DNA of 39,641 nt from a virus. This document shows positions 1,234-17,627 of the stretch, in pieces (positions within the stretch are counted from its first letter, which is position 1; every line of letters starts with the position of its first letter). Both the position numbers and the translations under genes were made by a program. Under the pieces are notes generated by a model. It made no database searches. It saw only the letters and a program-made list of their open reading frames with translations, and had not been told where the DNA came from. Location: IMG/VR virus record IMGVR_UViG_3300025000_000229, positions 1 to 39,641 of that record; one strand, written 5' to 3'.

Positions 1234-1418
1234 AAGCCGTCCCGCTCGCTATAGCAGAAGCCGTCAACCTCTGCCACATGGCGCGGGATTGGGCGTATGG
1301 GCCGGGGGAGCATCAGATTGTTGATCGGTGCGAACTGTTGCTACAGATGGCGATTGACGAGTTGTTGGAGATGAAACGTGACCCTAAAAATGTTCCACTG
1401 CGAACATCACAACTATGA
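1230..1418 (+). CDS. Small helical protein of the lysis cassette
   Basis: The ATG at 1230 overlaps the TGA of the Cys-rich micro-gene (ATGA), so translation is probably coupled; no strong independent ribosome site is seen. A TTG further upstream in frame is less likely. The 62-residue product is predicted helical and amphipathic (VDRCELLLQMAIDELLEMKR), without signal peptide or clear membrane span. No family is recognised. Position between a membrane protein and the endolysin suggests a lysis accessory or regulator. Confidence 0.65.
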   Translation: MKAVPLAIAEAVNLCHMARDWAYGPGEHQIVDRCELLLQMAIDELLEMKRDPKNVPLRTSQL

Positions 1419-1455
1419 CAGATGGGTGCATTGCGACTGGAAGGAGTGCAAATAG
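1390..1455 (+). CDS. 21-residue Cys/His-rich microprotein, copy 2
   Basis: A 21-codon frame just before the endolysin encodes CEHH near the start and HC...KEC at the end, with three Cys and four His in 21 residues. The order matches the micro-genes at 1153 and 1876. The ribosome site is weak (GGAG lies about 18 bases away) and it overlaps the end of the previous gene, so expression probably needs coupling. Zn binding is inferred from residue spacing only. Confidence 0.4.
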   Translation: MFHCEHHNYDRWVHCDWKECK

Positions 1456-1456
1456 T

Positions 1457-1879
1457 ATGAGCAGGATAGACAGTCTCGAACCGGAGTTTGCGGAGAAGGT
1501 CAAGGCGCTGATAAAAGCAACGGAGATGGCGACGCAGCTTAAATGGGTCATCACTTCTGGCAGGCGCACGATGGCGGAACAACTCAAGCTGTATAAGCAA
1601 GGAAGGACGGCACCGGGGAAAGTTGTGACCAATGCTCGTCCCGGTTCATCGGCTCACAATTTTGGACTTGCCGCCGACCTTGCCCCGATGCGGAGAGATG
1701 GCCGTATCTGGTGGGAAGCGCCTAAGTCGGTATGGCAGAAGATGGCCGATATTGCGCGGGAGATGGGAATGGTGTCGGGCTTTTATTTCAAAACTATTTA
1801 CGATGCGCCTCATGTCGAAGATGCCGGATGGAAAACGGTACAAGCGAAATGGAAAGCTGGGGAGATTCACGTAGCATGA
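1457..1879 (+). CDS. Endolysin, peptidase M15 (L-alanyl-D-glutamate / D-Ala-D-Ala peptidase type)
   Basis: This 140-residue Zn peptidase probably cleaves peptide bonds in peptidoglycan stems to lyse the host. The M15 metal-binding signature is complete: H67 and D74 in SSAHNFGLAADL, and H119 in DAPHVED. The ATG at 1457 is chosen over one 14 codons upstream because GGAAGGAG lies about 10 bases before it. There is no signal peptide, so release would need a holin or an equivalent; nearby membrane proteins are candidates. Its TGA overlaps the next micro-gene. The length is typical of single-domain M15 endolysins. Confidence 0.92.
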   Translation: MSRIDSLEPEFAEKVKALIKATEMATQLKWVITSGRRTMAEQLKLYKQGRTAPGKVVTNARPGSSAHNFGLAADLAPMRRDGRIWWEAPKSVWQKMADIAREMGMVSGFYFKTIYDAPHVEDAGWKTVQAKWKAGEIHVA

Positions 1880-1959
1880 GCTACTGCCCACACCACAGAC
1901 GCAACAAAGCGCATGGCATGGAGCCGTGCTGCAAGTATTGCCAATGGAGGGATGAATGA
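1876..1959 (+). CDS. 27-residue Cys/His-rich microprotein, copy 3
   Basis: The ATG overlaps the endolysin stop (ATGA), with GGGGAGAT about 9 bases upstream. The product has CPHH near the N-terminus, then PCCKYCQW near the end: four Cys and at least three His, fitting one Zn site. It resembles the micro-genes at 1153 and 1390 in order and spacing (C-x-H-[HQ]...CC/HC...C-x-W). Its TGA overlaps the next start. Function is unknown. Confidence 0.6.
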   Translation: MSYCPHHRRNKAHGMEPCCKYCQWRDE

Positions 1960-2576
1960 TGAAGATAGCGTTCCGCAAGAAGTGCCACACCATTTACAGC
2001 CGGATTATCTGTTTCTGGACTTTTGGCAAGTACTCTCATTCGGAAATCGTCTTCTCCGATGGCAGAAGTTTTTCTGCTGACGAGTCTGATGGTGGGACGC
2101 GCTGGAAAGACGGGATAATGACCGATGACGAGTGGGACTTCATCGACATTCCTTGCAACAAGACTCAGGAGAAGGAAATCCGTAAGTTCTGTGAAGGAGA
2201 AGACGGACTGAAGTACGACATGGTAGGCATCGGCTTTTCCTTCCTTCCCATTCCTATTGGCTGGCAGTCGGCAGAAAAGTGGTTTTGCTCAGAGATATGC
2301 GCGGCGGCGTTGCAACAGATTGGCTATTTGGTGGGCTACACTCCTTCGAGGATCAGCCCGAATAAACTGTACTCCCTGCTCAAGAATGAACGGCGACTTC
2401 GTATTAAGTCGTTGCCGTTATCGCTTCTGCTTATTGCCCTCACTGGCTGCGCTTCCGTCGCCTGTCCAAAAACCGTCCAGGTTGAGGCAGGAACCGGCGT
2501 GAGACATGAGGTGGGGGAAAGCCCTATTAAAACCAACACGGCCATTGTACGGGCCACATGGGAGTTGAGGAAATGA
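1956..2576 (+). CDS. Permuted NlpC/P60 (YiiX-like) hydrolase with an internal lipobox segment
   Basis: GGAGG lies 7 bases before the ATG. Residues 1-150 look like a permuted papain-fold cell-wall hydrolase/amidase: H28 in FGKYSHSEIVFSDG and C111 in KWFCSEICAAAL fit the permuted His-then-Cys order. Residues 148-165 read RIKSLPLSLLLIALTGC, a complete lipoprotein signal with lipobox Cys165, and residues 166-206 resemble a short o-spanin. A lipobox is normally at the N-terminus, so this could be a fusion of two lysis genes or an internal start (TTG at 2412). The hydrolase part is a confident fold guess; bond specificity is unknown. Confidence 0.75.
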   Translation: MMKIAFRKKCHTIYSRIICFWTFGKYSHSEIVFSDGRSFSADESDGGTRWKDGIMTDDEWDFIDIPCNKTQEKEIRKFCEGEDGLKYDMVGIGFSFLPIPIGWQSAEKWFCSEICAAALQQIGYLVGYTPSRISPNKLYSLLKNERRLRIKSLPLSLLLIALTGCASVACPKTVQVEAGTGVRHEVGESPIKTNTAIVRATWELRK

Positions 2577-2926
2577 AATACGTAATCGTTGCACTACTTC
2601 TCTTGGTAACTTCTGGTGCATATGCCGAATGGGAAGGTTTCAAGTTTGTCAACGAAGATAGGCATACCTGTGAGTATGAAAACGTGACGCGCCTTGTAAA
2701 CGAAGGCGATGCCGCCTGCACTCACGATTGGGTTTATGAGCCGGAAAGCATTGGCCCTAGTGTAGTGTATGCCGTCTATTGCACCTGTGGTTGCCCCGGC
2801 GAAGGGCGCAACAAGATATGCAGAAAATGTCTCAGGAAGGTCAATGAGAACACTGTGGGAAGAATGGTAGCGCCAGAAGAATCCGAATACAGCAAACTGA
2901 ATCGACTGATAGAAGGTGTGAAATGA
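2573..2926 (+). CDS. Secreted Cys-rich protein
   Basis: The ATG at 2573 follows GTTGAGGAA and overlaps the previous stop; an upstream in-frame ATG (2558) would spoil the signal peptide. Residues 1-20 (MKYVIVALLLLVTSGAYA) form a signal peptide ending in an AYA cleavage site. The mature 100 residues carry eight Cys, including CTCGCPGEGRNKICRKC, a knuckle-like cluster. A periplasmic metal-binding or disulfide-bonded lysis accessory is possible. No family is recognised. The next lipoprotein gene overlaps its stop. Confidence 0.75.
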   Translation: MKYVIVALLLLVTSGAYAEWEGFKFVNEDRHTCEYENVTRLVNEGDAACTHDWVYEPESIGPSVVYAVYCTCGCPGEGRNKICRKCLRKVNENTVGRMVAPEESEYSKLNRLIEGVK

Positions 2927-3081
2927 GATGGCTACTGATAGCGACACTCCTTGCCGGATGCGCCTACAATTCACAGACCGTCAATGCTTATGGAAGTCTC
3001 GTCTATTGTCACGGCACGGTTGATAAGCCTGTTGACGTGAGCACTGAACTCAAGGGCAACAAAGTAACTCCTATACCGTAA
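2923..3081 (+). CDS. Small lipoprotein, o-spanin (Rz1)-like
   Basis: The 52-residue product starts by ATGA overlap with the upstream gene. Residues 1-13 (MRWLLIATLLAGC) are a compact lipoprotein signal with an LAGC lipobox; the mature part is 40 residues. Short outer-membrane lipoproteins in a lysis cassette are typical o-spanins, pairing with an inner-membrane coiled-coil protein such as the one at 912. The mature chain is not Pro-rich as in lambda Rz1, so the spanin role is a context inference. Confidence 0.75.
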   Translation: MRWLLIATLLAGCAYNSQTVNAYGSLVYCHGTVDKPVDVSTELKGNKVTPIP

Positions 3082-3091
3082 AGGACAGACC

Positions 3092-4039
3092 ATGAACGAA
3101 TCATTCAGGTACGACAAGGGATTGGGAGATGCCGCGATTTACATGAGGCTCCTGAACAGTTCAGGCGAGTTCTACGACTTCCTGGCTACATCGTTTGTCT
3201 CGGTGGAAACCGCCAACTGTCAACTCCTGATGACGGAGTTCCCCGACAGTTCAACGGAACAGTCCTGGTACTATACAACCTTTGATTCTCCTGCCGGGGG
3301 GCCGTTTGCTATTGAGATTGTCTTAGTCTCGACCAGTGAAGTCATCGGTTACGATACGGTCTTCTCTTCGACTGAAGCAAGCGAGGCGGGGGAAACGTCT
3401 ATCGGGGATCTTCTGGACATCGTTATCGGAAGGTTTGCGAAAATCAACAAGCCGCCGATGATCGACTTCCTGACTGCGGCGAACATGACGATGGACATTA
3501 TCTACCGCAGGCTGATGACAAAGAAATCCGAACTCATCCTGGGGTCTTTCTCTCAGGCGGTCTTAGCGAATGCGTCAACCGTGACGCTGCCAACCGATTT
3601 CCAGGGGTTTTTTGAGCGTCCCTATATCTCAGGGTCAACCTGGCATCTCGACCCGTTACCGGGCGAATATCGCGCTTCCTTAACGACTGCCGGCAGACCT
3701 CAGTTTTACGAATTGAGGGGAACGACGATGACCCTCTTCCCGACGACGAGTGCTGCTTTGACTATCGTCGGACAGTATTACAAAAAGCCGGTCAAGTTTA
3801 CCGCGTTGACCAACGTCATTCCTTACAATGGCCTGATTGATAACGTCTTGCAGGAAGGCATCATTGCAGTCGGCATGACCGGGATGGGCGCGTTACTCGA
3901 CGCTCAATTCCAGGCAATCATGAGCAAGATGATTGACGAGATCCTTGCCTTCAGATCTCCGCGAACCGTCAGATTCCACTACACCTATGAGAACAGCCAA
4001 CGTATGCGGGGCGCACACCCTGACTACTTCAACGTATGA
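3092..4039 (+). CDS. Head-tail adaptor-like structural protein
   Basis: AAAGGA precedes the ATG. The N-terminal 100 residues look like a beta-sandwich accessory domain. From residue 125 (AANMTMDIIYRRLMTKK) the sequence turns helical, then shows LPTDFQGFFERPYISG and FYELRGTTMTLFPT, a pattern I associate with podovirus adaptor (connector) proteins that sit under the portal. It is followed by another connector-like gene and the tail tube gene. Assignment is from remembered pattern and gene order, not a search. The N-terminal domain is an apparent extra. Confidence 0.6.
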   Translation: MNESFRYDKGLGDAAIYMRLLNSSGEFYDFLATSFVSVETANCQLLMTEFPDSSTEQSWYYTTFDSPAGGPFAIEIVLVSTSEVIGYDTVFSSTEASEAGETSIGDLLDIVIGRFAKINKPPMIDFLTAANMTMDIIYRRLMTKKSELILGSFSQAVLANASTVTLPTDFQGFFERPYISGSTWHLDPLPGEYRASLTTAGRPQFYELRGTTMTLFPTTSAALTIVGQYYKKPVKFTALTNVIPYNGLIDNVLQEGIIAVGMTGMGALLDAQFQAIMSKMIDEILAFRSPRTVRFHYTYENSQRMRGAHPDYFNV

Positions 4040-4695: not shown

Positions 4696-6271
4696 GCTGA
4701 AGCCTTTTGGCGGGATCATCCCGAAAGCCGACCCTCACTATCTACCCGACTCAGCGGCAGTGACGGCGCAAAACTGTAAGTTCACGTCTGGTTCTCTGGA
4801 AGCGTGGAAGAACCCCTTGACGGTGAACACTCCCTTGAAAGTCGGGACGAAGACCAGCATCTATCTCTACGAAGATCAATACTGGCTGCATTGGGTTGAT
4901 CTTGATGTAAACGTCGCTAAAAGTCCGATGGCGACCGACGCTTTTAAAAGAATCTACTGGACCGGCGACGGCGCTCCGAAGATGTCGGTTCTGGAAGCGA
5001 TAACCACCGGAGGAACGGCGTACCCGAACAACTCCTACTTGTTGGGTGTCCCGGCTCCGGCGATGGCCCCGACCGTCTCGGTAGTGGGGAGTATTACCGA
5101 TCCCGACCCGACGCTTGTGGAGTCTCGGGCTTACGTTTATCGGTACGTCTCGGCGTATGGCGAAGCTGGCCCTCCGTCTTCTGCTTCCGTAACCGTTGAC
5201 GTTGCTCCCGGTCAGAGCGTTGACATCACCAACATGAGCGTGGCCCCTGTCGGCAACTACAACATAGCGACGAAGGAAATCTTCCGGTCGAATACGGGAA
5301 GTTCCGATACAGCCTATCAGTTGGCCGGTTCAGTAGCGGTGGCGACAACGACCTTTTCAGACACGGTAGACTCAGCCGACCTGGGCGAAGTCTTGGACAG
5401 TCTCTTGTGGGACGTTCCACCGACTGACTTGAAAGGCTTGATTGCCCTGCCGAATGGCTGTCTTGCCGGTTACTCAGGGAACGAACTCTGCTATTCGGTC
5501 CCGTATCAGCCTCATGCGTGGCCTCTTAATCAGAGATGGCCGGTAGCGGATACCATCATGGGTATTGGGTCGTATGGCATGACGGTTCTTGTCACGACAG
5601 ACGGTGCTCCCTGCATCGCAACTGGTCAAGACCCGACCGACGTGACTATTGAGAGACTTGAAAATGGTTACGCCTGTACGCTGAAACTCGGTGTCGTGGA
5701 CATGGGCTATGCCGTTGCCTATCCTTCGACCGGAGGCTTGATGTCTGCCGGGGTCAATGGGGTGGAACTGATTACCAGGGACATTCTTTCCAAAGACGAT
5801 TGGCAAGCGTTGGGTCTGACGAAAGCCTACTTCTACGGAGGGCTTTACATCGGTTTCGGAACGACGACTTTCATCTTTAATCCCGCGACGAAAGACCTGG
5901 CGACTCTTTCGGGAATCACGGCGACGGCAGGCTTTCATGATCCCGCGACCGGCGAACTCTATCTTATGGTGGGGAGTAACATAGTCAAGTGGGATGCCGG
6001 GGTCGGGTATCTGACCTATACGTGGAAGTCGAAGCCGTTTGTCTCCGAGAAACCGATCAACATGAGTTGCGCGAGAGTCTATGCCGACACCTACCCTGTG
6101 ACGTTGAAACTCTATGTAGACGCGACGTTGAAGCATACACAGACTGTCTTGAATAATCTGGTCTTTAGACTGCCTTTAGGCTTTCGTGGTACGGAGATTG
6201 CCGCGCAAGTCGAAGGAACTGTCAACGTCTATGCCGTGGACATTGCCGAAAGCGTTGGGGAAATGAAATGA
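4685..6271 (+). CDS. Tail tubular B-like / large tail protein
   Basis: The 528-residue product starts MRIRLKPFGGIIPKADPHYL, followed by VTAQNCKFTSGSLEAW, an opening that recurs in podovirus tail tube/nozzle proteins. The body is beta-rich with an FN3-like stretch near residues 140-190 (YRYVSAYGEAGPPSSASVTV) and propeller-like repeats after it. It follows the connector gene and precedes the fibre gene with ATGA overlap. It probably forms the lower tail tube. The fold call is inference; structural role is strongly supported by gene order. Confidence 0.7.
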   Translation: MRIRLKPFGGIIPKADPHYLPDSAAVTAQNCKFTSGSLEAWKNPLTVNTPLKVGTKTSIYLYEDQYWLHWVDLDVNVAKSPMATDAFKRIYWTGDGAPKMSVLEAITTGGTAYPNNSYLLGVPAPAMAPTVSVVGSITDPDPTLVESRAYVYRYVSAYGEAGPPSSASVTVDVAPGQSVDITNMSVAPVGNYNIATKEIFRSNTGSSDTAYQLAGSVAVATTTFSDTVDSADLGEVLDSLLWDVPPTDLKGLIALPNGCLAGYSGNELCYSVPYQPHAWPLNQRWPVADTIMGIGSYGMTVLVTTDGAPCIATGQDPTDVTIERLENGYACTLKLGVVDMGYAVAYPSTGGLMSAGVNGVELITRDILSKDDWQALGLTKAYFYGGLYIGFGTTTFIFNPATKDLATLSGITATAGFHDPATGELYLMVGSNIVKWDAGVGYLTYTWKSKPFVSEKPINMSCARVYADTYPVTLKLYVDATLKHTQTVLNNLVFRLPLGFRGTEIAAQVEGTVNVYAVDIAESVGEMK

Positions 6272-8406
6272 GCCTACCCGACCTCCCTACCATACCGTCG
6301 AGTCAGGAGCCGAATACCAGACGGGCGCTTGACATGCTCCGCGTCCTCTTCAATTCGCTAAAGAAGAAGGGGGGCTTGGTAGCGGTCAATGACTTGGTGA
6401 ATGCGGGACTGGTGGACTCTTCACTTCAGGCGACTGGTTCCGAGTATGACGGCGCGATCCCCCCCGCTATCGTCGGTTTGACGGCGACAGGAGCGTTCCG
6501 AACCATCATCCTGGAGTGGGATGCGGTGAACTTCAGAAACTACGCCTACGTCGAGATTTGGCGCTCTACGACTAATGACTTGGGAACTGCGGTAAAGATC
6601 GGCACGACGACAGCAACGCTTTACTCCGACCTTCCGCCGAATGCGTCAATGGCCGTGAACTATTACTATTGGGTGCGGGTCATTAGCCGGTCGAACATAA
6701 TTGGACCCTTCAACGCGACTTCAGGGACTTCCGCAACGACTGCCAATGACCCTGCGTATGTCATCGAAATCCTCGAAAACCAGTTGACCGAAAACGAACT
6801 GTACGGAGATTTGCAAAGCAGAATCAACCTCATTGACACGACAGGGACCGGTCTTATTGACCGGATGATTTCCGTCGAGGCAGGGGTGGAGACTGCCCTT
6901 GCCAACGGAATCACGACCGCGCCTTTTGATGTGAATGAAACCTACATCGTGGGTGCGCTCGTTTCCTATGACAATTCAATCTACAAATGTATTCTCGAAA
7001 TCAACACGCCTCCCGCGCCTGTCCCGACGAACGAAACGTATTGGGTTCTGATTGGGAATTACGCGACTCTTGCTGACATGGTTTCGGCACAAGCGGCGAG
7101 TCTTACGTCTCTGGATAGCGAAGTAGATGGCATCGGCAGTACGGTTGCCGCTCATTCAGGGTACATCACGGCGCTTGAAACAACTGTCAACGACCCCGCT
7201 ACCGGAGTAACTGCGACATCGGGTGCCTTGACGACTCTCACTTCAAGAGTGACCAATACCGAGAACACCAACACGTCGCAGGGTTCAGCTATCACGGCGC
7301 TTGAGTCCACGGTGAACAACGGGACTACTGGAGTGACCGCGACTGCTTCTGCATTGTCTACGCTGACAACAAGAGTGACTAATGTAGAGGGGGTGAATAC
7401 TTCTCAGGCATCAAGCATCTCTTCTCTTACATCATCCGTAAGCTCAAACGCGGCAGCTATCATCAGTGAGGCGAGCACTAGAGCAAGTGCAGACAGTGCC
7501 TTGTCGTCGTCTGTTTCGACGCTTCAAAGCACGGTTAGCGGTCACACTACTTCCATTCAGACCAACGCTACTTCAATCGACGGCATCCAAGGCAAGTACA
7601 CCGTCAAGATCGACAACAATGGGTATGTGACCGGCTACGGGCTGATTTCGACGCTGAACAACGGAACGCCCACTTCCGAGTTTGCCGTTGTTGCGGATAA
7701 GTTCACAATCGCCCCGGTGGCGACGAATGGCGATGCAGATGATGGTTCGCCCTTCTTTCATTTGACAACTACCACGACTGTTGACGGGGTGAGTCTGTCT
7801 GCTGGCACGTACATGAAGACCGCGTTTATTGGTGATTTGACTGTAAAGAATGCGAAGATTGCCAACGAAGCGGTAGACACTTCTAAAATTACTAACCTTG
7901 CTGTTACTACCGCAAAAATGGCCGACCTTGCGGTGACGACTGCAAAGATGGTTGACGCTGCTATAACTACAGCCAAAATAGGCGATGCTCAAGTAAATAC
8001 ACTAAAAATAGGAGCGAACGCTGTTACCGTACCTATCGGCGTAGCATACGGTCCTGAATCTAAGGTTGCCAACTGGACTTTTTTGAATGCTACGGTCTGG
8101 ACTACGCTAACATCAGCAACTATTTCTTCTGAAGGCCAGCCGGTACAAATACTTGTATCAGTTGTTACTGACAAATCGCAATATACACACTTTCGGATTG
8201 TGAAGGATTCCGATGCGTCAGTGCTTTACGATAGTCTGTCAATAACGGGAGTTGTGTCTACGACTACGGTGGTAAGGTTGGATGTTTCGCCAGCGTCGAG
8301 TGAGACGTATACCGTCCAGTATTTGTCAAGTTATTCAGTGTTGGGAGGCGGGTCGCAAACTCTATCCCTCAGAGTCTATATTGGTCTATTAGGAGTGAAG
8401 CGATGA
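6268..8406 (+). CDS. J-like receptor-binding / central fibre protein with FN3 and carbohydrate-binding module
   Basis: Domains in order: N-terminal helical anchor (1-60); FN3 domain (about 68-160, LTATGAFRTIILEWDAV ... YYYWVRVISR); a CBM5/12-like carbohydrate-binding module (about 219-264, YIVGALVSYDNSIYKCI ... YWVLIG); two tandem repeats of about 42 residues with TGVTAT and SRVTN/TRVTN cores (about 300-390); a helical stalk; a lambda-J C-terminal type domain (EFAVVADKFTIAP, residues 470-485); then AVTTAKM-type ten-residue repeats and a beta-rich tip. It is likely the host-recognition tail tip. The FN3 plus J-type domain is unusual for a short-tailed phage. Confidence 0.8.
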   Translation: MSLPDLPTIPSSQEPNTRRALDMLRVLFNSLKKKGGLVAVNDLVNAGLVDSSLQATGSEYDGAIPPAIVGLTATGAFRTIILEWDAVNFRNYAYVEIWRSTTNDLGTAVKIGTTTATLYSDLPPNASMAVNYYYWVRVISRSNIIGPFNATSGTSATTANDPAYVIEILENQLTENELYGDLQSRINLIDTTGTGLIDRMISVEAGVETALANGITTAPFDVNETYIVGALVSYDNSIYKCILEINTPPAPVPTNETYWVLIGNYATLADMVSAQAASLTSLDSEVDGIGSTVAAHSGYITALETTVNDPATGVTATSGALTTLTSRVTNTENTNTSQGSAITALESTVNNGTTGVTATASALSTLTTRVTNVEGVNTSQASSISSLTSSVSSNAAAIISEASTRASADSALSSSVSTLQSTVSGHTTSIQTNATSIDGIQGKYTVKIDNNGYVTGYGLISTLNNGTPTSEFAVVADKFTIAPVATNGDADDGSPFFHLTTTTTVDGVSLSAGTYMKTAFIGDLTVKNAKIANEAVDTSKITNLAVTTAKMADLAVTTAKMVDAAITTAKIGDAQVNTLKIGANAVTVPIGVAYGPESKVANWTFLNATVWTTLTSATISSEGQPVQILVSVVTDKSQYTHFRIVKDSDASVLYDSLSITGVVSTTTVVRLDVSPASSETYTVQYLSSYSVLGGGSQTLSLRVYIGLLGVKR

Positions 8407-12248: not shown

Positions 12249-15200
12249 ATGGGACTGCTCGACTCGTTACCGGATGAAAAGGGCGGGATGCTGGACTCGT
12301 TGCCTGATGAACCTGTCGCCAAGGTCGAAAAGCCAAAGCGTTCTCTTATCGGTGAGTTTGGTGCCGGCATCGCTCAAGGGGCGCTGCAACTCCCTCAGAT
12401 GGTGGGTGGAGTTACCAAGTTGGCCGGCGATGCGATAGGCAGTGAGGCGGTCAGTGCCGTGGGCAAAGACGCCATAAATTACTGGGGAGAGAAACTGAAG
12501 CCGTATGGTGCGGAAGTCCCTTCATTCACCGACATTGAAGACGCGGGAGACGCTGCTAAATACGTGGCTCATGGTGTTGGTGCTCTCGTCCCGACCGTCG
12601 CTGCGTCCGTTGTCTCTGGTGGCATCGGTGCCGGCCTTGCGAAAGAAGGCGTCAAAAGGGCGATTGCTAAGGAAATCGTCAAGCGCGAACTCAAGCACGA
12701 AGCTGTTGACCTCATGGCAAAAGGTGCTGTCAAGGAAACGGTAAAGAAAGCCGTTACAAGGGGGGCAATAGCCGGGGCCGGCGCTGCGAGTTACGGCATG
12801 GAAGCAGGGAGTATCTATACCGATCAAGCCGAGCAGGGCATCAAGAAACCGTTGAGGGCGGCGTTGACGGCGGTTCCTGCGGCGGCACTCGATGTCATTC
12901 CTGAGTTAAGGATCCTGTCGAAGATCCCTGCGTTCAAGGTCTTGCAGGAGACCCCCTTCTTCAAGACTGCCGAAGGACGCAACGCCCTTGTCAGAGGTGG
13001 TAAAGAAGCTCTCAAGCAAGGCGGGGCGGAAGGCGTCACCGAATTTGCTCAGACGCTTATTGAGCGGTACGGCGCGGATAAAGAAGTGTTCTCGAAAGAA
13101 GGGTGGTTGGAAGCTTTCAACGCTGGCATCCTTGGGGGGATTGGTGGTGGCATGATGGGTGGTGTTGCTGGTTCAGTACAGAAGCCGGCGACTGACACGA
13201 ATCTGCTCAAGGACGAAGAGACGAGCGATATTGCAAAAGAACTTCTGAGAGTCAGGAATCAGCCGGTTGTGCCAAGCGTACAGACCGTAACAGAGCCGCC
13301 AGCAATGACGGTTCCAGCCTACGAAGGTCCGGTAATGGATGCCGAAGCACCGACTCCCGAAGACCTGGAACTTCAGTCGATGCAGAGAGAGAACGAAAAC
13401 TACCGTCAGCAGCAGTTGATGGACAAGCAAGACATCCCTACTGTCGAAGAGAAACCTGTTCCGCAAGTCCCTTCCTCATTCAAGACGGCAGACGGCAAAG
13501 TGACGGTGAAGACGAAGGCCGTTGGTGAAGGCGTCTTCCAGGTCGAGACAACGAACATTGACGAGTACGGTCACAAGAAGACGTTTGTTCAAGAGATGAG
13601 CGCGGAAGACGCCGTTAAGCACATCGACAACGTAACTCCCCCGGTGACGAGGGATCAATATCTTCAGGTCAAAGGAGTCAATGATGAAGAAATGTCCGAA
13701 GTGCAAACATCAAATGCTGAAGGCGACCAAAGTCTGTCCGAAGTGCAAAACGAAGGTTCCGTAAATGATAGTCCAGAAACCGGAGGGATGGTACGTCCAG
13801 TCGGAGAAGGGGCGCAACCTGGGGGGGGCGTATCAGACAGCGCAGCAAGCGCACTCCCGACAGGCGAAGGTGGAGGAATGCTGCCTCAGGGATCGACCGT
13901 CGAAACCGCGCCATCCGAAGAAAGTAAAGCAAGTGCTGAAGCGTCCAAAACGGCTCCCAAAGTAGTCATCAAGTCTCTCTCCGACCTTCCCCCTGGACAA
14001 CATGAGATCAAGGGCGCAGGGACGTTCCTCGTTGACGACAAGGGAAGAGTGAAGATTCTTCGTGGGACGAAACTTGAAGCAGTCGATCCAATGAGACGGA
14101 AGCTGGCAATTGACAAATACAATGGGATAGTCTTAGCTGAGAAGCAGAAGGCGAATCGTGAAGCGTTGAAAGTCGGTAAGACGAAGCAGAAGCAGTTGGC
14201 CGAAGAAGCGCGGGGCATTGCTGAAGACGATGCTCCCTACCTCCGTGCCGCCTTACAGAACGTCAAGGATGCTGACTTTGGCAAGATCAGTGTCGATGGA
14301 AACGAGACTGAAGCTACCTGGTCAACCTTTGGCGCGTTGATTCCGTACATCAGGGGTACGGGTATCAGTAAAGCTGACGCAGTGAAGATCATGTCGGAAG
14401 CGGTTGAGACGGGTAAACTGCCTCCTGAGAAGAACAAAGCAGAGAGAGGCTTGGTAGAGTCTGCCTTGAAGCATGAAAAGGAACGCATCGAGGAAGCGGA
14501 GAATCGTGTTGAGACTACTGACGAGCGGCTTGTCCAGCAAGAGATAGCAGAAGAAAGAGACACAGTAGAGGGTGGGGATACGAGTTTTGAATTTGGGGAA
14601 GAACCTGAATCTTCACTGCCTTTGATGGAAGGCGATCAATCCAAACTCTTCCCCACTCCCCCGACCTTTGGCAAGAAACCGCAAGGGACAGGAACCGTCT
14701 CTGAAACGCCGATGCTCACGGAAATGAAGGAGCGGGAAGCGGAGTCGAAACAAACTTCAATGACCCTTGACATGCTCGGGATGCAGCAGATTTACGAATC
14801 GTTGACCGATGGCGTTATGAAGGAACACGCGACAACCGCTTTGGAGAAAGTCCGTAACACTCTCGACAATCCCGGTGGCCTTGGGACATTGGGCAATTGG
14901 AAGCAATACTTGGCGAAGCGTTACAAGACTCTCGGGACGTTATCAAGCATCAAGGACTTCACGCATCAGATAACGAAGACCTTTGGTAAAGCCTCCGAGA
15001 ATGACCGTAAAGCTATTTTCGAGTTCCTGACCGATAAACAGGGTGATGCGTCAACCATCTCTCCCACTCTCAGGGAAGAATCGATCAAGATGAAGCAGAT
15101 GATCGAGGACATCGGGGATAAACTCGTCGCCTACGGGCTTATCCCTCAAGACGTGATGGACGCAAACCGGGGCGCGTACCTCCCTACCGTCTACCTCAAA

Positions 15201-17627
15201 CACATCCTGGGCAAAGAGGGCTTTCAGGCGATGGGTTCAGGGAAGAAACTCGACCTGACCTACACGAAGAAGAAGTACCTCCGAAAGTCTCTCAAGGAAC
15301 AAGGTCTGACTGAAGAAGAAATCGACCTGTTTATGAGAACGCAGATGGGGGAGATCAAAGATCCTGCCTATCTCTTGGCGAGGGCGTTTTCCATTCCTTC
15401 GAGGGACATGGCAATCATCGACTGGCTGGCGGAAATCGCTACGCATAGCGAATGGGTGTTGCCGAAGTCTCTCATCGAGTGGACTCATTCTGAAAACCCA
15501 GTCAGGAGATCAGGAAGAGTCGAGTACAAGAAGAACGCTGACGGTTCTTTTGACCTGAAGATTCACAAGACGAAGATGGTCGAGACGAAACACACTGTTA
15601 CGTCTTCTGCTCTTGGGAAACTTATCGGCAGCGACAAGATTGCCGACTACATCAAGGCCGGTAAGGGAAAACAGCAGACTCGCAAGGATGACGTAAAGGG
15701 GAAGGTCGTTTACAAACCGACTCCCTGGAAGAAGGTCGGGCATATTCAGTACAAGCTCAATCCTGACGGGACGTTTACCCTGAAGATCAAGGAAAAGGTC
15801 ACGTCTGTTGACGAGTTGAGCGGTGTCAAAGACCTCAAGAGTCTGGTAGGGGAGAAGAAGGCCGATCAGATTCTTAACGACGAAGGGAAGGCGTTGGGGG
15901 GGAGGAAGGTCACTCCGTTCTGGCTGGCTGCGGAAGCGAAGAGAATCAGGGAGATGATCCCGCATCTTCCCGAAGCAGATAGAGCCGAAGCGAAGGAAGT
16001 TGCAGACAGGATGCAGCGGCTTTCCGACGAAGCAGACGTGAGCGGCAAACTCCCTGACGATTACCGACAGATGCCCGACTCTGCGAAGTACGGCGCTCTT
16101 AGAGGCTTGGTAGTTCGGAAGGAGATTTACAGCGACCTGGTAGGCAATATCAACATCTCCATCGGTGAAAAGTCTCTGCCTGAAGAATGGCTCGGGACGG
16201 GCGGGAAGATCACGAAACTGACCGGCATGTGGAAATGGGCGAAGGTGGCTGCCAATCCTCCGGCACAGGTGAGGAACTTTATCTCCAACCTCGTCCTGCT
16301 CAATCTGTCGGGAATCCCGGTGTATCGTGTGCCGATCAGGATGGCGCAAGCCGTTAAGGAAATCAGGTCAAACGGGAAGCACTGGCAAGTCGCTAAGAAG
16401 TACGGTGTCAAGGAAGCGACCTTCTCGAATACGGAGTTGGCACGAATTGAAACAGCCCTCATGGAGATGGCGAACAGAGACTACGGGTTTACGCGAGGCA
16501 TGAAGAAACTTGCTTCTTCTCTGGCGGCTCTTGATATGAAAGGGGCTAAAGAGGGTGCAAGCGCGGCGTTTAATCCGGTGAAACTTGCCGGGGCGAAGGT
16601 AGTCAATGCAACCGGTGATGTTTATCAGTTTATGGAGGCGATGGGTAAAACGGCAAAGATCATTGACGAGATGGAGAACGGTAAATCTGGTGAAGAGGCG
16701 GCAATGGAAGCGCATAAATGGCTCTTCGACTACTCACTCGTAGCTCCCGGTGTCAAGTATCTCCGCAATGCGCCGATAGGCATCCCCTTTATTACGTTCA
16801 TGTCGAAAGTTTTACCTCGTCTTGTCGAGGTTGCCGTTACAAAGCCCTGGCGCTTCACCCCATATGTAGCTATAGCTTACGGGATGCAAGCGGCTGTAGC
16901 GGGAATGCTGGACGTTGACGACGATGATCTTGACAAGCTGAGAGAAGCGTTGCCGGAATGGATCAGGGAGAAACAGCATGTCTATTTCCTCCCCTATAAA
17001 GACGACGCCGGCAGATGGCAGGTTGTAGACTTGGGCTACTTCTTTCCGTGGACACAATGGACTACGTTTGCCGAAGATGTTGGAGAAGGCGACTTGTGGA
17101 AAGCGATGCGGGGGTCTGGAATCCTGGGCGGTCCTCTTCCTGATTTGATCGTCGCGCTCAAGACCAACGTCGATCCTTTCACGCAACGGCCTATCATCGA
17201 TAAGTACGCTGACCCTGCCGAAAAGGCTGCTCAGATGTTCGGCTACCTCTATCAGATGGCAATGCCTCCCTGGTTGACGCAACGAGGAACGGCGGGAAAA
17301 CTGTATTCTGCTCTGTCTGAAAACGTGGACAAGTTCGGACTGCCGAAAGCGACTGTCAAACAGGCGGGTCTTTCAATGGCTGGCATCAATCTTTCCGGAT
17401 TTGACCCTGCCTTGACGAGAGGACAGAACCTCAAGAGGATGGACTTCGAAATCAGCGAAGTGCAGAGACAGGCAAAGAGTGAATTGCAGAACAAGAATCT
17501 TTCCGACTCTGAACGCGAAGAGATCCGCGAGAAGTTCAAGAAACGCATCCAGAAAATGAACCTCAAGAAAATAAAGTATGCTGCCAACTCGATGCCGAAG
17601 AACGAGTCATTACTACAAAGGAGATGA
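12249..17627 (+). CDS. Giant ejection / polyvalent-type virion protein (1792 residues)
   Basis: The N-terminus repeats LDSLPDE twice, then has hydrophobic glycine-zipper segments (about 35-65, 105-140, 175-190, 295-315). Residues about 360-600 are acidic and low complexity, probably a disordered linker; two small genes are nested here in another frame. A helical globular domain follows (from about 830). Near 1086-1225 is a tandem imperfect duplication with GRVEYKKNADGSFDLKI and GHIQYKLNPDGTFTLKI. From about 1328 (WAKVAANPPAQVRNFISNLV) to 1560 it resembles a large-polyvalent-protein-associated (LPD38-like) region. It probably enters the host with the genome. No lysozyme motif is recognised. 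The frame is uninterrupted. Confidence 0.75.
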   Translation: MGLLDSLPDEKGGMLDSLPDEPVAKVEKPKRSLIGEFGAGIAQGALQLPQMVGGVTKLAGDAIGSEAVSAVGKDAINYWGEKLKPYGAEVPSFTDIEDAGDAAKYVAHGVGALVPTVAASVVSGGIGAGLAKEGVKRAIAKEIVKRELKHEAVDLMAKGAVKETVKKAVTRGAIAGAGAASYGMEAGSIYTDQAEQGIKKPLRAALTAVPAAALDVIPELRILSKIPAFKVLQETPFFKTAEGRNALVRGGKEALKQGGAEGVTEFAQTLIERYGADKEVFSKEGWLEAFNAGILGGIGGGMMGGVAGSVQKPATDTNLLKDEETSDIAKELLRVRNQPVVPSVQTVTEPPAMTVPAYEGPVMDAEAPTPEDLELQSMQRENENYRQQQLMDKQDIPTVEEKPVPQVPSSFKTADGKVTVKTKAVGEGVFQVETTNIDEYGHKKTFVQEMSAEDAVKHIDNVTPPVTRDQYLQVKGVNDEEMSEVQTSNAEGDQSLSEVQNEGSVNDSPETGGMVRPVGEGAQPGGGVSDSAASALPTGEGGGMLPQGSTVETAPSEESKASAEASKTAPKVVIKSLSDLPPGQHEIKGAGTFLVDDKGRVKILRGTKLEAVDPMRRKLAIDKYNGIVLAEKQKANREALKVGKTKQKQLAEEARGIAEDDAPYLRAALQNVKDADFGKISVDGNETEATWSTFGALIPYIRGTGISKADAVKIMSEAVETGKLPPEKNKAERGLVESALKHEKERIEEAENRVETTDERLVQQEIAEERDTVEGGDTSFEFGEEPESSLPLMEGDQSKLFPTPPTFGKKPQGTGTVSETPMLTEMKEREAESKQTSMTLDMLGMQQIYESLTDGVMKEHATTALEKVRNTLDNPGGLGTLGNWKQYLAKRYKTLGTLSSIKDFTHQITKTFGKASENDRKAIFEFLTDKQGDASTISPTLREESIKMKQMIEDIGDKLVAYGLIPQDVMDANRGAYLPTVYLKHILGKEGFQAMGSGKKLDLTYTKKKYLRKSLKEQGLTEEEIDLFMRTQMGEIKDPAYLLARAFSIPSRDMAIIDWLAEIATHSEWVLPKSLIEWTHSENPVRRSGRVEYKKNADGSFDLKIHKTKMVETKHTVTSSALGKLIGSDKIADYIKAGKGKQQTRKDDVKGKVVYKPTPWKKVGHIQYKLNPDGTFTLKIKEKVTSVDELSGVKDLKSLVGEKKADQILNDEGKALGGRKVTPFWLAAEAKRIREMIPHLPEADRAEAKEVADRMQRLSDEADVSGKLPDDYRQMPDSAKYGALRGLVVRKEIYSDLVGNINISIGEKSLPEEWLGTGGKITKLTGMWKWAKVAANPPAQVRNFISNLVLLNLSGIPVYRVPIRMAQAVKEIRSNGKHWQVAKKYGVKEATFSNTELARIETALMEMANRDYGFTRGMKKLASSLAALDMKGAKEGASAAFNPVKLAGAKVVNATGDVYQFMEAMGKTAKIIDEMENGKSGEEAAMEAHKWLFDYSLVAPGVKYLRNAPIGIPFITFMSKVLPRLVEVAVTKPWRFTPYVAIAYGMQAAVAGMLDVDDDDLDKLREALPEWIREKQHVYFLPYKDDAGRWQVVDLGYFFPWTQWTTFAEDVGEGDLWKAMRGSGILGGPLPDLIVALKTNVDPFTQRPIIDKYADPAEKAAQMFGYLYQMAMPPWLTQRGTAGKLYSALSENVDKFGLPKATVKQAGLSMAGINLSGFDPALTRGQNLKRMDFEISEVQRQAKSELQNKNLSDSEREEIREKFKKRIQKMNLKKIKYAANSMPKNESLLQRR
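13681..13764 (+). CDS. 27-residue double-CPKC zinc ribbon nested inside the giant gene
   Basis: In the +1 frame relative to the giant gene, AAAGGAG (13671-13677) precedes tandem ATGs by 3 and 6 bases. The product has KKCPKCKHQ and VCPKCKTKVP: two CPKC knuckles 14 residues apart, the classic four-Cys zinc ribbon of small phage proteins. The chance of a strong ribosome site, a start and a perfect double CxxC in an unused frame is low. The stop TAA directly abuts the next nested ATG. The main frame over this stretch is a Ser/Glu-rich linker. Confidence 0.7.
   Translation: MMKKCPKCKHQMLKATKVCPKCKTKVP
13765..13965 (+). CDS. Small basic phage protein (SEKG-x-NLGG-Y type), nested inside the giant gene
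   Basis: The ATG follows the nested zinc ribbon stop with no gap (TAAATG). The 66 residues begin MIVQKPEGWYVQSEKGRNLG and continue GAYQTAQQAHSRQAKVE, very like the widespread short phage proteins of the form Y-x-V-x-S-x-K-G-K-x-L-G-x-Y-x-[ST]-x-x-x-A-x-x-R-L-x-x-V-E. The last 25 residues are strongly basic (PKKVKQVLKRPKRLPK). Resemblance to a known family in a non-main frame is the best evidence that this is a real overlapping gene or a recently captured one. Function is unknown. Confidence 0.65.
   Translation: MIVQKPEGWYVQSEKGRNLGGAYQTAQQAHSRQAKVEECCLRDRPSKPRHPKKVKQVLKRPKRLPK

What the first reader, a model, noticed from the sequence alone, without database searches (positions are those of the whole stretch)
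13671..13965. Two small genes nested in another frame inside the giant ejection-protein gene
AAAGGAG is followed by a double-CPKC zinc ribbon frame, then with no gap by a 66-residue frame resembling a widespread small phage family (SEKG-x-NLGG-Y). Both are in the +1 frame of the 1792-residue gene. The host frame here is a Ser/Glu/Gly-rich linker, which tolerates overprinting. Either overlapping genes evolved in place, or a small gene pair was swallowed when two ORFs fused, turning it into a linker. Gene nesting of this kind in a virion gene, with family resemblance in the nested frame, is unusual.
Basis: partly seen in the sequence, partly recalled or inferred. Interest (0 to 1): 0.82.

Follow-up and report, generated by a model that had tools for sequence, protein, structure and literature searches.

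The report
Small genes nested inside giant phage gene
Two tiny phage genes are hidden, in a shifted reading frame, inside one very large phage gene; sequence conservation shows that at least the second is a genuine protein-coding gene, and the same family of tiny gene is hidden in the same way inside other, mostly unrelated giant phage genes, which seems not to have been reported.

Summary
Two ORFs lie in the +1 frame of a 1792-aa phage gene: A (13684-13764, 26 aa, CPKC...CPKC) and B (13765-13965, 66 aa). Two independent relatives (87-88% nt) keep both. In B the usual rates are reversed: host-frame synonymous change is almost absent (0.02-0.05, versus 0.36-0.60 elsewhere in the gene), while the nested frame has pN 0.00-0.03 against pS 0.16-0.20. 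No other window of the gene looks like this. B belongs to a widespread ~41-residue phage mini-domain (SEKGKNLGGPY; bba fold; DUF2188-like) with dozens of standalone and in-frame fused copies, so B is older than the overlap and the giant gene overprinted it.

Scanning the family showed recurrence: the same mini-gene is nested in the same phase, mostly behind a ribosome-binding site, in at least six further giant hosts, mostly unrelated outside the overlap. Several are polyvalent (ejected) proteins with ART, Strawberry-notch, LPD38 or DarB-like parts. The window host's C-terminal core occurs in about 35 contigs; only the window family has the nested genes, in the variable middle.

Nesting of small phage genes is known (Rz1); recurrent nesting of one family in polyvalent-protein linkers appears unreported in the papers held. 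Translation is inferred, not measured.

The parts
12249..17627 (+). Host gene: 1792-aa giant virion/ejection-type protein
   Evidence: ORF; N-terminal part matches phrog_6958 virion structural protein, E 1.4e-9; rest of gene under strong purifying selection, win-L104 pS 0.364 pN 0.030; C-terminal core shared with about 35 contigs
13671..13677 (+). AAAGGAG Shine-Dalgarno for nested ORF A
   Evidence: AAGGAG 6 nt before ATG 13684; only 1.3% of out-of-frame starts in this host have a match as long
13684..13764 (+). Nested ORF A: 26-aa double-CxxC zinc-ribbon-like peptide (in-frame ATG also at 13681)
   Evidence: kept in L103 and L104 with all four Cys; win-L103 nested pS 0.33 pN 0.057 against host frame pS 0.068 pN 0.105
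13752..13764 (+). GAAGG plus stop TAA immediately before ATG of B: weak Shine-Dalgarno and stop/start coupling A to B
   Evidence: AAGG, spacing 8; L104 has instead AAGGAG at spacing 7, supplied by a 114-bp insert between A and B
13765..13965 (+). Nested ORF B: 66 aa, SEKG/DUF2188-like mini-domain plus basic tail
   Evidence: selection test; family alignment; AlphaFold2
13765..13884 (+). Conserved ~40-residue core of B (b-b-turn-a), motif SEKGRNLGGAY at residues 13-23
   Evidence: 12 invariant columns in 29 sequences; pLDDT 85-92 for residues 1-40
13885..13962 (+). Lys/Arg/Pro-rich tail of B, seen only in the window family
   Evidence: alignment; pLDDT about 61-67
13680..13961 (+). Overprinted host linker (host residues 478-571), Ser/Glu/Gly-rich; the GEGAQPGG stretch is the shadow of SEKGRNLGG
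   Evidence: host-frame pN exceeds pS here; similar shadows appear in other hosts
12249..13238 (+). Host N-terminal Gly/Ala-rich segment (residues about 1-330)
   Evidence: phrog_6958 match at residues 27-317
14691..17561 (+). Host conserved C-terminal core (residues about 815-1771)
   Evidence: short relatives of 1030-1106 aa carry this core and no nested gene

Best explanation
A pre-existing phage small gene, B (a DUF2188-like, ~41-residue bba mini-protein), together with a tiny zinc-ribbon gene, A, has been captured inside the variable middle of a giant virion/ejection-protein gene, which now reads through the pair in another phase as a disordered linker. Both small proteins are most likely made by internal initiation on the giant gene's mRNA: A from AAAGGAG, B by stop/start coupling (TAAATG) plus a weak SD of its own. 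They are therefore produced together with the protein that surrounds them. Selection acts on the small protein's sequence, while the host frame only has to stay open. The phase is fixed because most starts are ATGA, which puts a stop in the other frame, and because the SEKGKNLGGPY codons read as G/E/P/R-rich sequence in the permitted frame. Shown: coding conservation of B, its family, its recurrence in other giant hosts, and the start signals. Inferred: translation, co-expression, and the direction of capture. Guess: B acts in or next to the virion or ejected complex, as its standalone and fused relatives beside head, portal and ART parts suggest.
For: (1) Reversed selection in B. Host pS/pN against nested pS/pN: win-L103 .049/.065 against .155/.033; win-L104 .030/.085 against .201/.033; L104-L103 .020/.048 against .180/.000. 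An independent pair, L032-L033, gives .126/.113 against .345/.059. 0 of 1404-3467 sliding windows reach the observed host pS or nested-frame differences. (2) L104 carries a 114-bp in-frame insert exactly between A and B; it leaves both intact and supplies AAGGAG for B. (3) Family: 108 distinct core sequences, 57 in small ORFs without a giant host and 38 in larger proteins. Several standalone viral copies lie near TerL, portal, head-tail adaptor or phrog_399 genes; in L040 a zinc-ribbon ORF and a SEKG ORF lie side by side just upstream of phrog_399. (4) Nested in the same phase in L032/L033, L055-L058, L053, L044, L076, L143/L202, L160, L166 and L185, with hosts mostly unrelated once the overlap is masked. 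(5) SD match length at ten nested starts sums to 55, against a mean of 11.9 for random out-of-frame starts, 0 of 20,000 draws. (6) Polyvalent-type domains in several hosts.
Against: No expression data. ORF A is only 26 codons; its conservation is clear in one pair but weaker in comparisons with L104. B's own SD in the window is weak (AAGG). A single origin of nesting is not rejected by the short-domain tree (p-AU 0.135). The window host itself has no Pfam effector domain, so 'polyvalent' rests on relatives and on other hosts. The role of the mini-protein is not shown.
Confidence: 0.8

Rival explanations
1. The nested ORFs are not expressed; they are a relic of an inserted gene whose DNA is kept only because the host linker is needed.
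For: The linker is kept in all three host relatives; no expression data exist.
Against: Reversed pN/pS: the host amino-acid sequence drifts (6-11 of 66 differences) while B keeps its own (0-4 of 66); host synonymous sites are nearly frozen. RBSs are present at nested starts across hosts.
Confidence: 0.06
2. A and/or B are reached by programmed frameshifting from the host frame, giving a shortened host protein that ends in the small domain.
For: The domain also occurs fused in frame inside polyvalent proteins, for example directly after ART-PolyVal in L088.
Against: A stop codon separates A from B and further stops lie upstream of A in that frame. Each family member has its own start and usually an RBS. 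No obvious slippery site was seen by eye.
Confidence: 0.07
3. Sub-variant of the best explanation: B entered giant genes as an intact small gene inserted repeatedly into tolerant linkers (a cassette), rather than by an upstream ORF extending through a neighbouring gene.
For: Sister hosts L137-L139 share the N-terminal domain of L032/L055 but lack the nested gene. Relatives of the window host include single short genes without the middle region.
Against: No insertion boundaries, target duplications or empty sites could be aligned. L044, a 336-aa host whose tail runs over the mini-gene, looks more like ORF extension.
Confidence: 0.4
4. Assembly or sequencing error created a false continuous host frame.
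For: All contigs are metagenomic.
Against: Three separate contigs of the window family, and many other contigs, keep both frames; the L104 insert is a multiple of three; the host flanks are under purifying selection.
Confidence: 0.01

Closest known systems
Lambda Rz/Rz1 and phiX174 B/E/K nested phage genes (from general knowledge)
   Same: A small gene lies wholly inside a larger gene in another frame, with its own start, and both products are used.
   Different: Those small genes are usually thought to be born inside the host gene. Here the small gene family is wider and apparently older, the giant gene frame is the newcomer, and the same family recurs in mostly unrelated hosts.
Polyvalent proteins (Iyer et al. 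2017, PMC5512222)
   Same: Several hosts of the nested gene carry ART-PolyVal, LPD38, Strawberry-notch/methylase or DarB-like parts in large phage proteins.
   Different: That paper's main text does not mention overlap or DUF2188. The window host itself has no recognised effector domain.
DUF2188 (PF09954)
   Same: The in-frame copy in L088 scores 24.7 bits against a cut-off of 22.
   Different: Window B itself has no Pfam hit, and the nested family is shorter.
PHROGs 3684, 13335 and 2859 (function unknown)
   Same: 25, 18 and 12 of 29 family members match at E up to 0.1.
   Different: Window B itself does not match.
Zinc-ribbon families (Pfam DZR, Zn_ribbon_3)
   Same: Two CxxC pairs, spaced as in a zinc ribbon.
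   Different: Below both curated cut-offs; the peptide is only 26 aa.

Membership tests
SEKG[KR]NLGG[PA]Y phage mini-domain (defined here) | ~40-residue core with S13 E14 K15 G16 N18 L19 G21 Y23 A29 R32 V36 E37 | tested here: met
   All 12 columns invariant in 29 sequences including window B
DUF2188 (PF09954) | Score above the Pfam gathering cut-off | tested here: inconclusive
   Window B: no hit. L088 in-frame relative: 24.7 bits against 22
Double zinc ribbon (PF12773) | Score above the gathering cut-off, two zinc knuckles | tested here: not met
   21.9 bits against a cut-off of 27.3, although both CxxC pairs are present
Nested overlapping gene pair | Nested frame under purifying selection, host frame continuous and coding on both sides | tested here: met
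   ORF A
Nested overlapping gene pair | Both products are translated | not testable with these tools
   Only indirect: RBS enrichment at nested starts
Polyvalent protein (window host) | Several disparate effector domains in one large ejected protein | tested here: inconclusive
   No Pfam domain in the window host. L005/L221, which shares the C-terminal core, has LPD23. LPD38 profile comparison with the window core negative
Polyvalent protein (other nested hosts) | Polyvalent-type domains in the host of the nested gene | tested here: met
   L055 and L185 ART-PolyVal, L076 and L202 LPD38, L053 InPase and GGDEF, L032 Strawberry-notch

The most novel reading that the evidence does not exclude
The linkers of giant ejected phage proteins are a recurrent home for captured small genes. 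One DUF2188-like mini-gene has been swallowed several times independently, always in the same phase, so that an older small gene dictates the linker sequence of a giant protein and is co-translated with it as a partner in the virion or ejected complex. The GxGxxPGG...GG[VI][LF]Q-like stretch shared by unrelated giant proteins would then be a shadow of the hidden gene, not a protein motif.
Probability: 0.5. Interest if true: 0.82.

Novelty: new variant of a known kind. Interest (0 to 1): 0.74.

Why it matters
Gene callers usually discard fully nested ORFs, so this class of phage gene goes unseen; here one family can be followed across standalone, fused and nested forms. That makes an old question testable: how an overlap forms, and which frame is the newcomer. 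It also warns that a shared motif in giant proteins can be the shadow of another gene, and it points to a small protein tied to phage ejection proteins.

Tried and rejected
blastn of the host gene, and tblastn of the L055 and L032 hosts, against named phages: no match. tblastn of the linker shadow in named phages: none, so no isolated phage with the nested form was found. Profile comparison of the N-terminal host domains (window against L032/L055): no relation. LPD38 in the window core: not supported. PDB sequence search with the family profile: none. PDB fold search: nothing significant; top entries 3bid and 6q2z at E about 2. Nesting claims for L113, L123, L146, L152 and L184 were set aside as possibly fortuitous: short hosts or hosts with no recognised homologue. 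Openness of the phase alone as an explanation was rejected: only 7 of 31 standalone copies are open in that frame. The origin of the 114-bp insert in L104 was not found.

Full report
Observation. The window is a 39.6-kb virus record. ORF 12249-17627 encodes 1792 aa; its N-terminal part matches phrog_6958, a virion structural protein, and it lies downstream of an internal virion protein gene and tail-type genes. In its +1 frame, AAAGGAG (13671-13677) is followed by ORF A, a 26-aa CPKC...CPKC peptide (13684-13764), and directly (TAAATG) by ORF B, 66 aa (13765-13965).

Relatives. Two contigs from other metagenomes, L002/L104 (IMGVR_UViG_3300025000_000384) and L003/L103 (IMGVR_UViG_3300025030_000017), are 87-88% identical here and keep the host frame, A and B. 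L104 carries a 114-bp, frame-preserving insert exactly between A and B. It leaves A's stop and B's start intact and brings AAGGAG in front of B.

Selection. Changes were counted in both frames. In B the host frame shows pS 0.049/0.030/0.020 and pN 0.065/0.085/0.048 for the three pairs, while the nested frame shows pS 0.155/0.201/0.180 and pN 0.033/0.033/0.000. The rest of the gene has host pS 0.60/0.36/0.55. None of 1404-1558 sliding windows has so low a host pS or so few +1-frame differences. The nested frame is therefore the constrained one and the host frame is a passive reading. ORF A shows the same in win-L103 (nested pS 0.33, pN 0.06; host 0.07, 0.11) and more weakly with L104.

Family. 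B's core is shared with a large phage family. Pattern and profile scans of viral and genomic contigs gave 108 distinct cores: 57 in small ORFs without a giant host, 38 inside larger proteins, 13 nested. Twelve columns are invariant in a 29-sequence alignment. AlphaFold2 gives a b-b-a fold with pLDDT 85-92 for residues 1-40 and a low-confidence basic tail. Fold matches among viral models include many 45-68-aa phage proteins and parts of XkdF and prohead-protease models, none below E 0.001. An in-frame copy in L088, placed just after an ART-PolyVal domain, passes the DUF2188 cut-off; other members match only weakly. Several standalone viral copies lie near terminase, portal, head-tail adaptor or phrog_399 genes. 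In L040 a zinc-ribbon ORF and the mini-gene are adjacent standalone genes. In Roufvirus-type and Vibrio phages the domain is the N-terminus of a head-region protein.

Recurrence. The mini-gene is nested, always in the same phase, inside L032 (at least 3818 aa), L033/L034, L055-L058 (2955 aa), L053 (1462 aa), L076 (3112 aa), L143/L202, L160 (2513 aa), L166, L185, and a smaller 336-aa ORF in L044. With the overlap masked, most of these hosts have no detectable similarity; L032, L033 and L055 share an N-terminal domain and some others share short C-terminal segments. Hosts carry polyvalent-type domains: AAA_34/Helicase_C_4, ART-PolyVal, InPase, LPD38, DarB-like. The pair L032-L033, independent of the window, repeats the selection signature: host .126/.113, nested .345/.059, with no window of 3467 as low in host pS. 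Nested starts have Shine-Dalgarno matches far above out-of-frame starts of the same genes: sum 55 against 11.9, 0 of 20,000 draws. The phase preference follows from the sequence: most starts are ATGA, which puts TGA in the other phase, and among standalone copies 7 of 31 are open in the permitted phase against 1 of 31 in the other.

Host anatomy and origin. The C-terminal core of the window host (residues about 815-1771) occurs in about 35 contigs, many with proteins of only 1030-1106 aa, others with very long N-terminal additions. Only the window family has the nested genes. The pair therefore sits in the variable middle of the gene. Since B's family is far wider than this host and the linkers of other hosts resemble it only as the alternate reading of the mini-gene, B is taken to be older than the overlap. 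Capture by insertion and capture by ORF extension are both possible. A tree of the short cores needs at least 10 changes between nested and other states, but one nested clade is not rejected (p-AU 0.135), so the number of independent captures is uncertain; the unrelated hosts argue for several.

Mechanism proposed. The mRNA of the giant gene is translated in the main frame into the ejection protein and, by internal initiation, into A and then B by coupling. Shown: coding conservation, start signals, recurrence. Inferred: translation and co-expression. Guessed: that B works in or near the virion or ejected complex.

Literature. The polyvalent-protein paper (PMC5512222) mentions neither overlaps nor DUF2188 in its main text. 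Searches for nested or overlapping small genes in phages found reviews of overprinting but nothing on this family. The paper library is limited, so this is not proof of absence.

Noticed in passing
L104 (contig IMGVR_UViG_3300025000_000384) 2373-2492: A 114-bp in-frame insert exactly between nested ORFs A and B; source not found among held sequences.
   Followed up: partly
L104 host residues 823-997 against window host residue 785: About 174 aa of extra host sequence in L104 that is absent from the window host, suggesting that the central region gains and loses modules.
   Followed up: no
L088 5954-13777: The same mini-domain is fused in frame directly behind an ART-PolyVal domain in a 2608-aa protein; L091 has a PARP-like match before its copy.
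   Followed up: partly
L137, L138, L139: Large phage proteins sharing the N-terminal domain of the L032/L055 hosts but without the nested mini-gene; L137 has LPD1 and methyltransferase matches, L139 zeta-toxin and ART-PolyVal matches.
   Followed up: partly
NC_028750.1 (Klebsiella phage Matisse), L140 988-1611: A relative of the mini-domain lies at the C-terminus of a short protein annotated as RNA ligase in T4-like phages.
   Followed up: no
window 6268-8406: Tail-tip/fibre protein with a CBM_5_12 (carbohydrate-binding) match below the Pfam cut-off.
   Followed up: no
window 1956-2576: Protein of the phrog_1128 enoyl-CoA hydratase-like family upstream of the structural genes; may be a ClpP/crotonase-type head protease.
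   Followed up: no
OR359403.1 (Aeromonas phage 1233) 54724-54852: An unannotated standalone copy of the mini-gene in an isolated phage; a practical source for biochemistry.
   Followed up: partly
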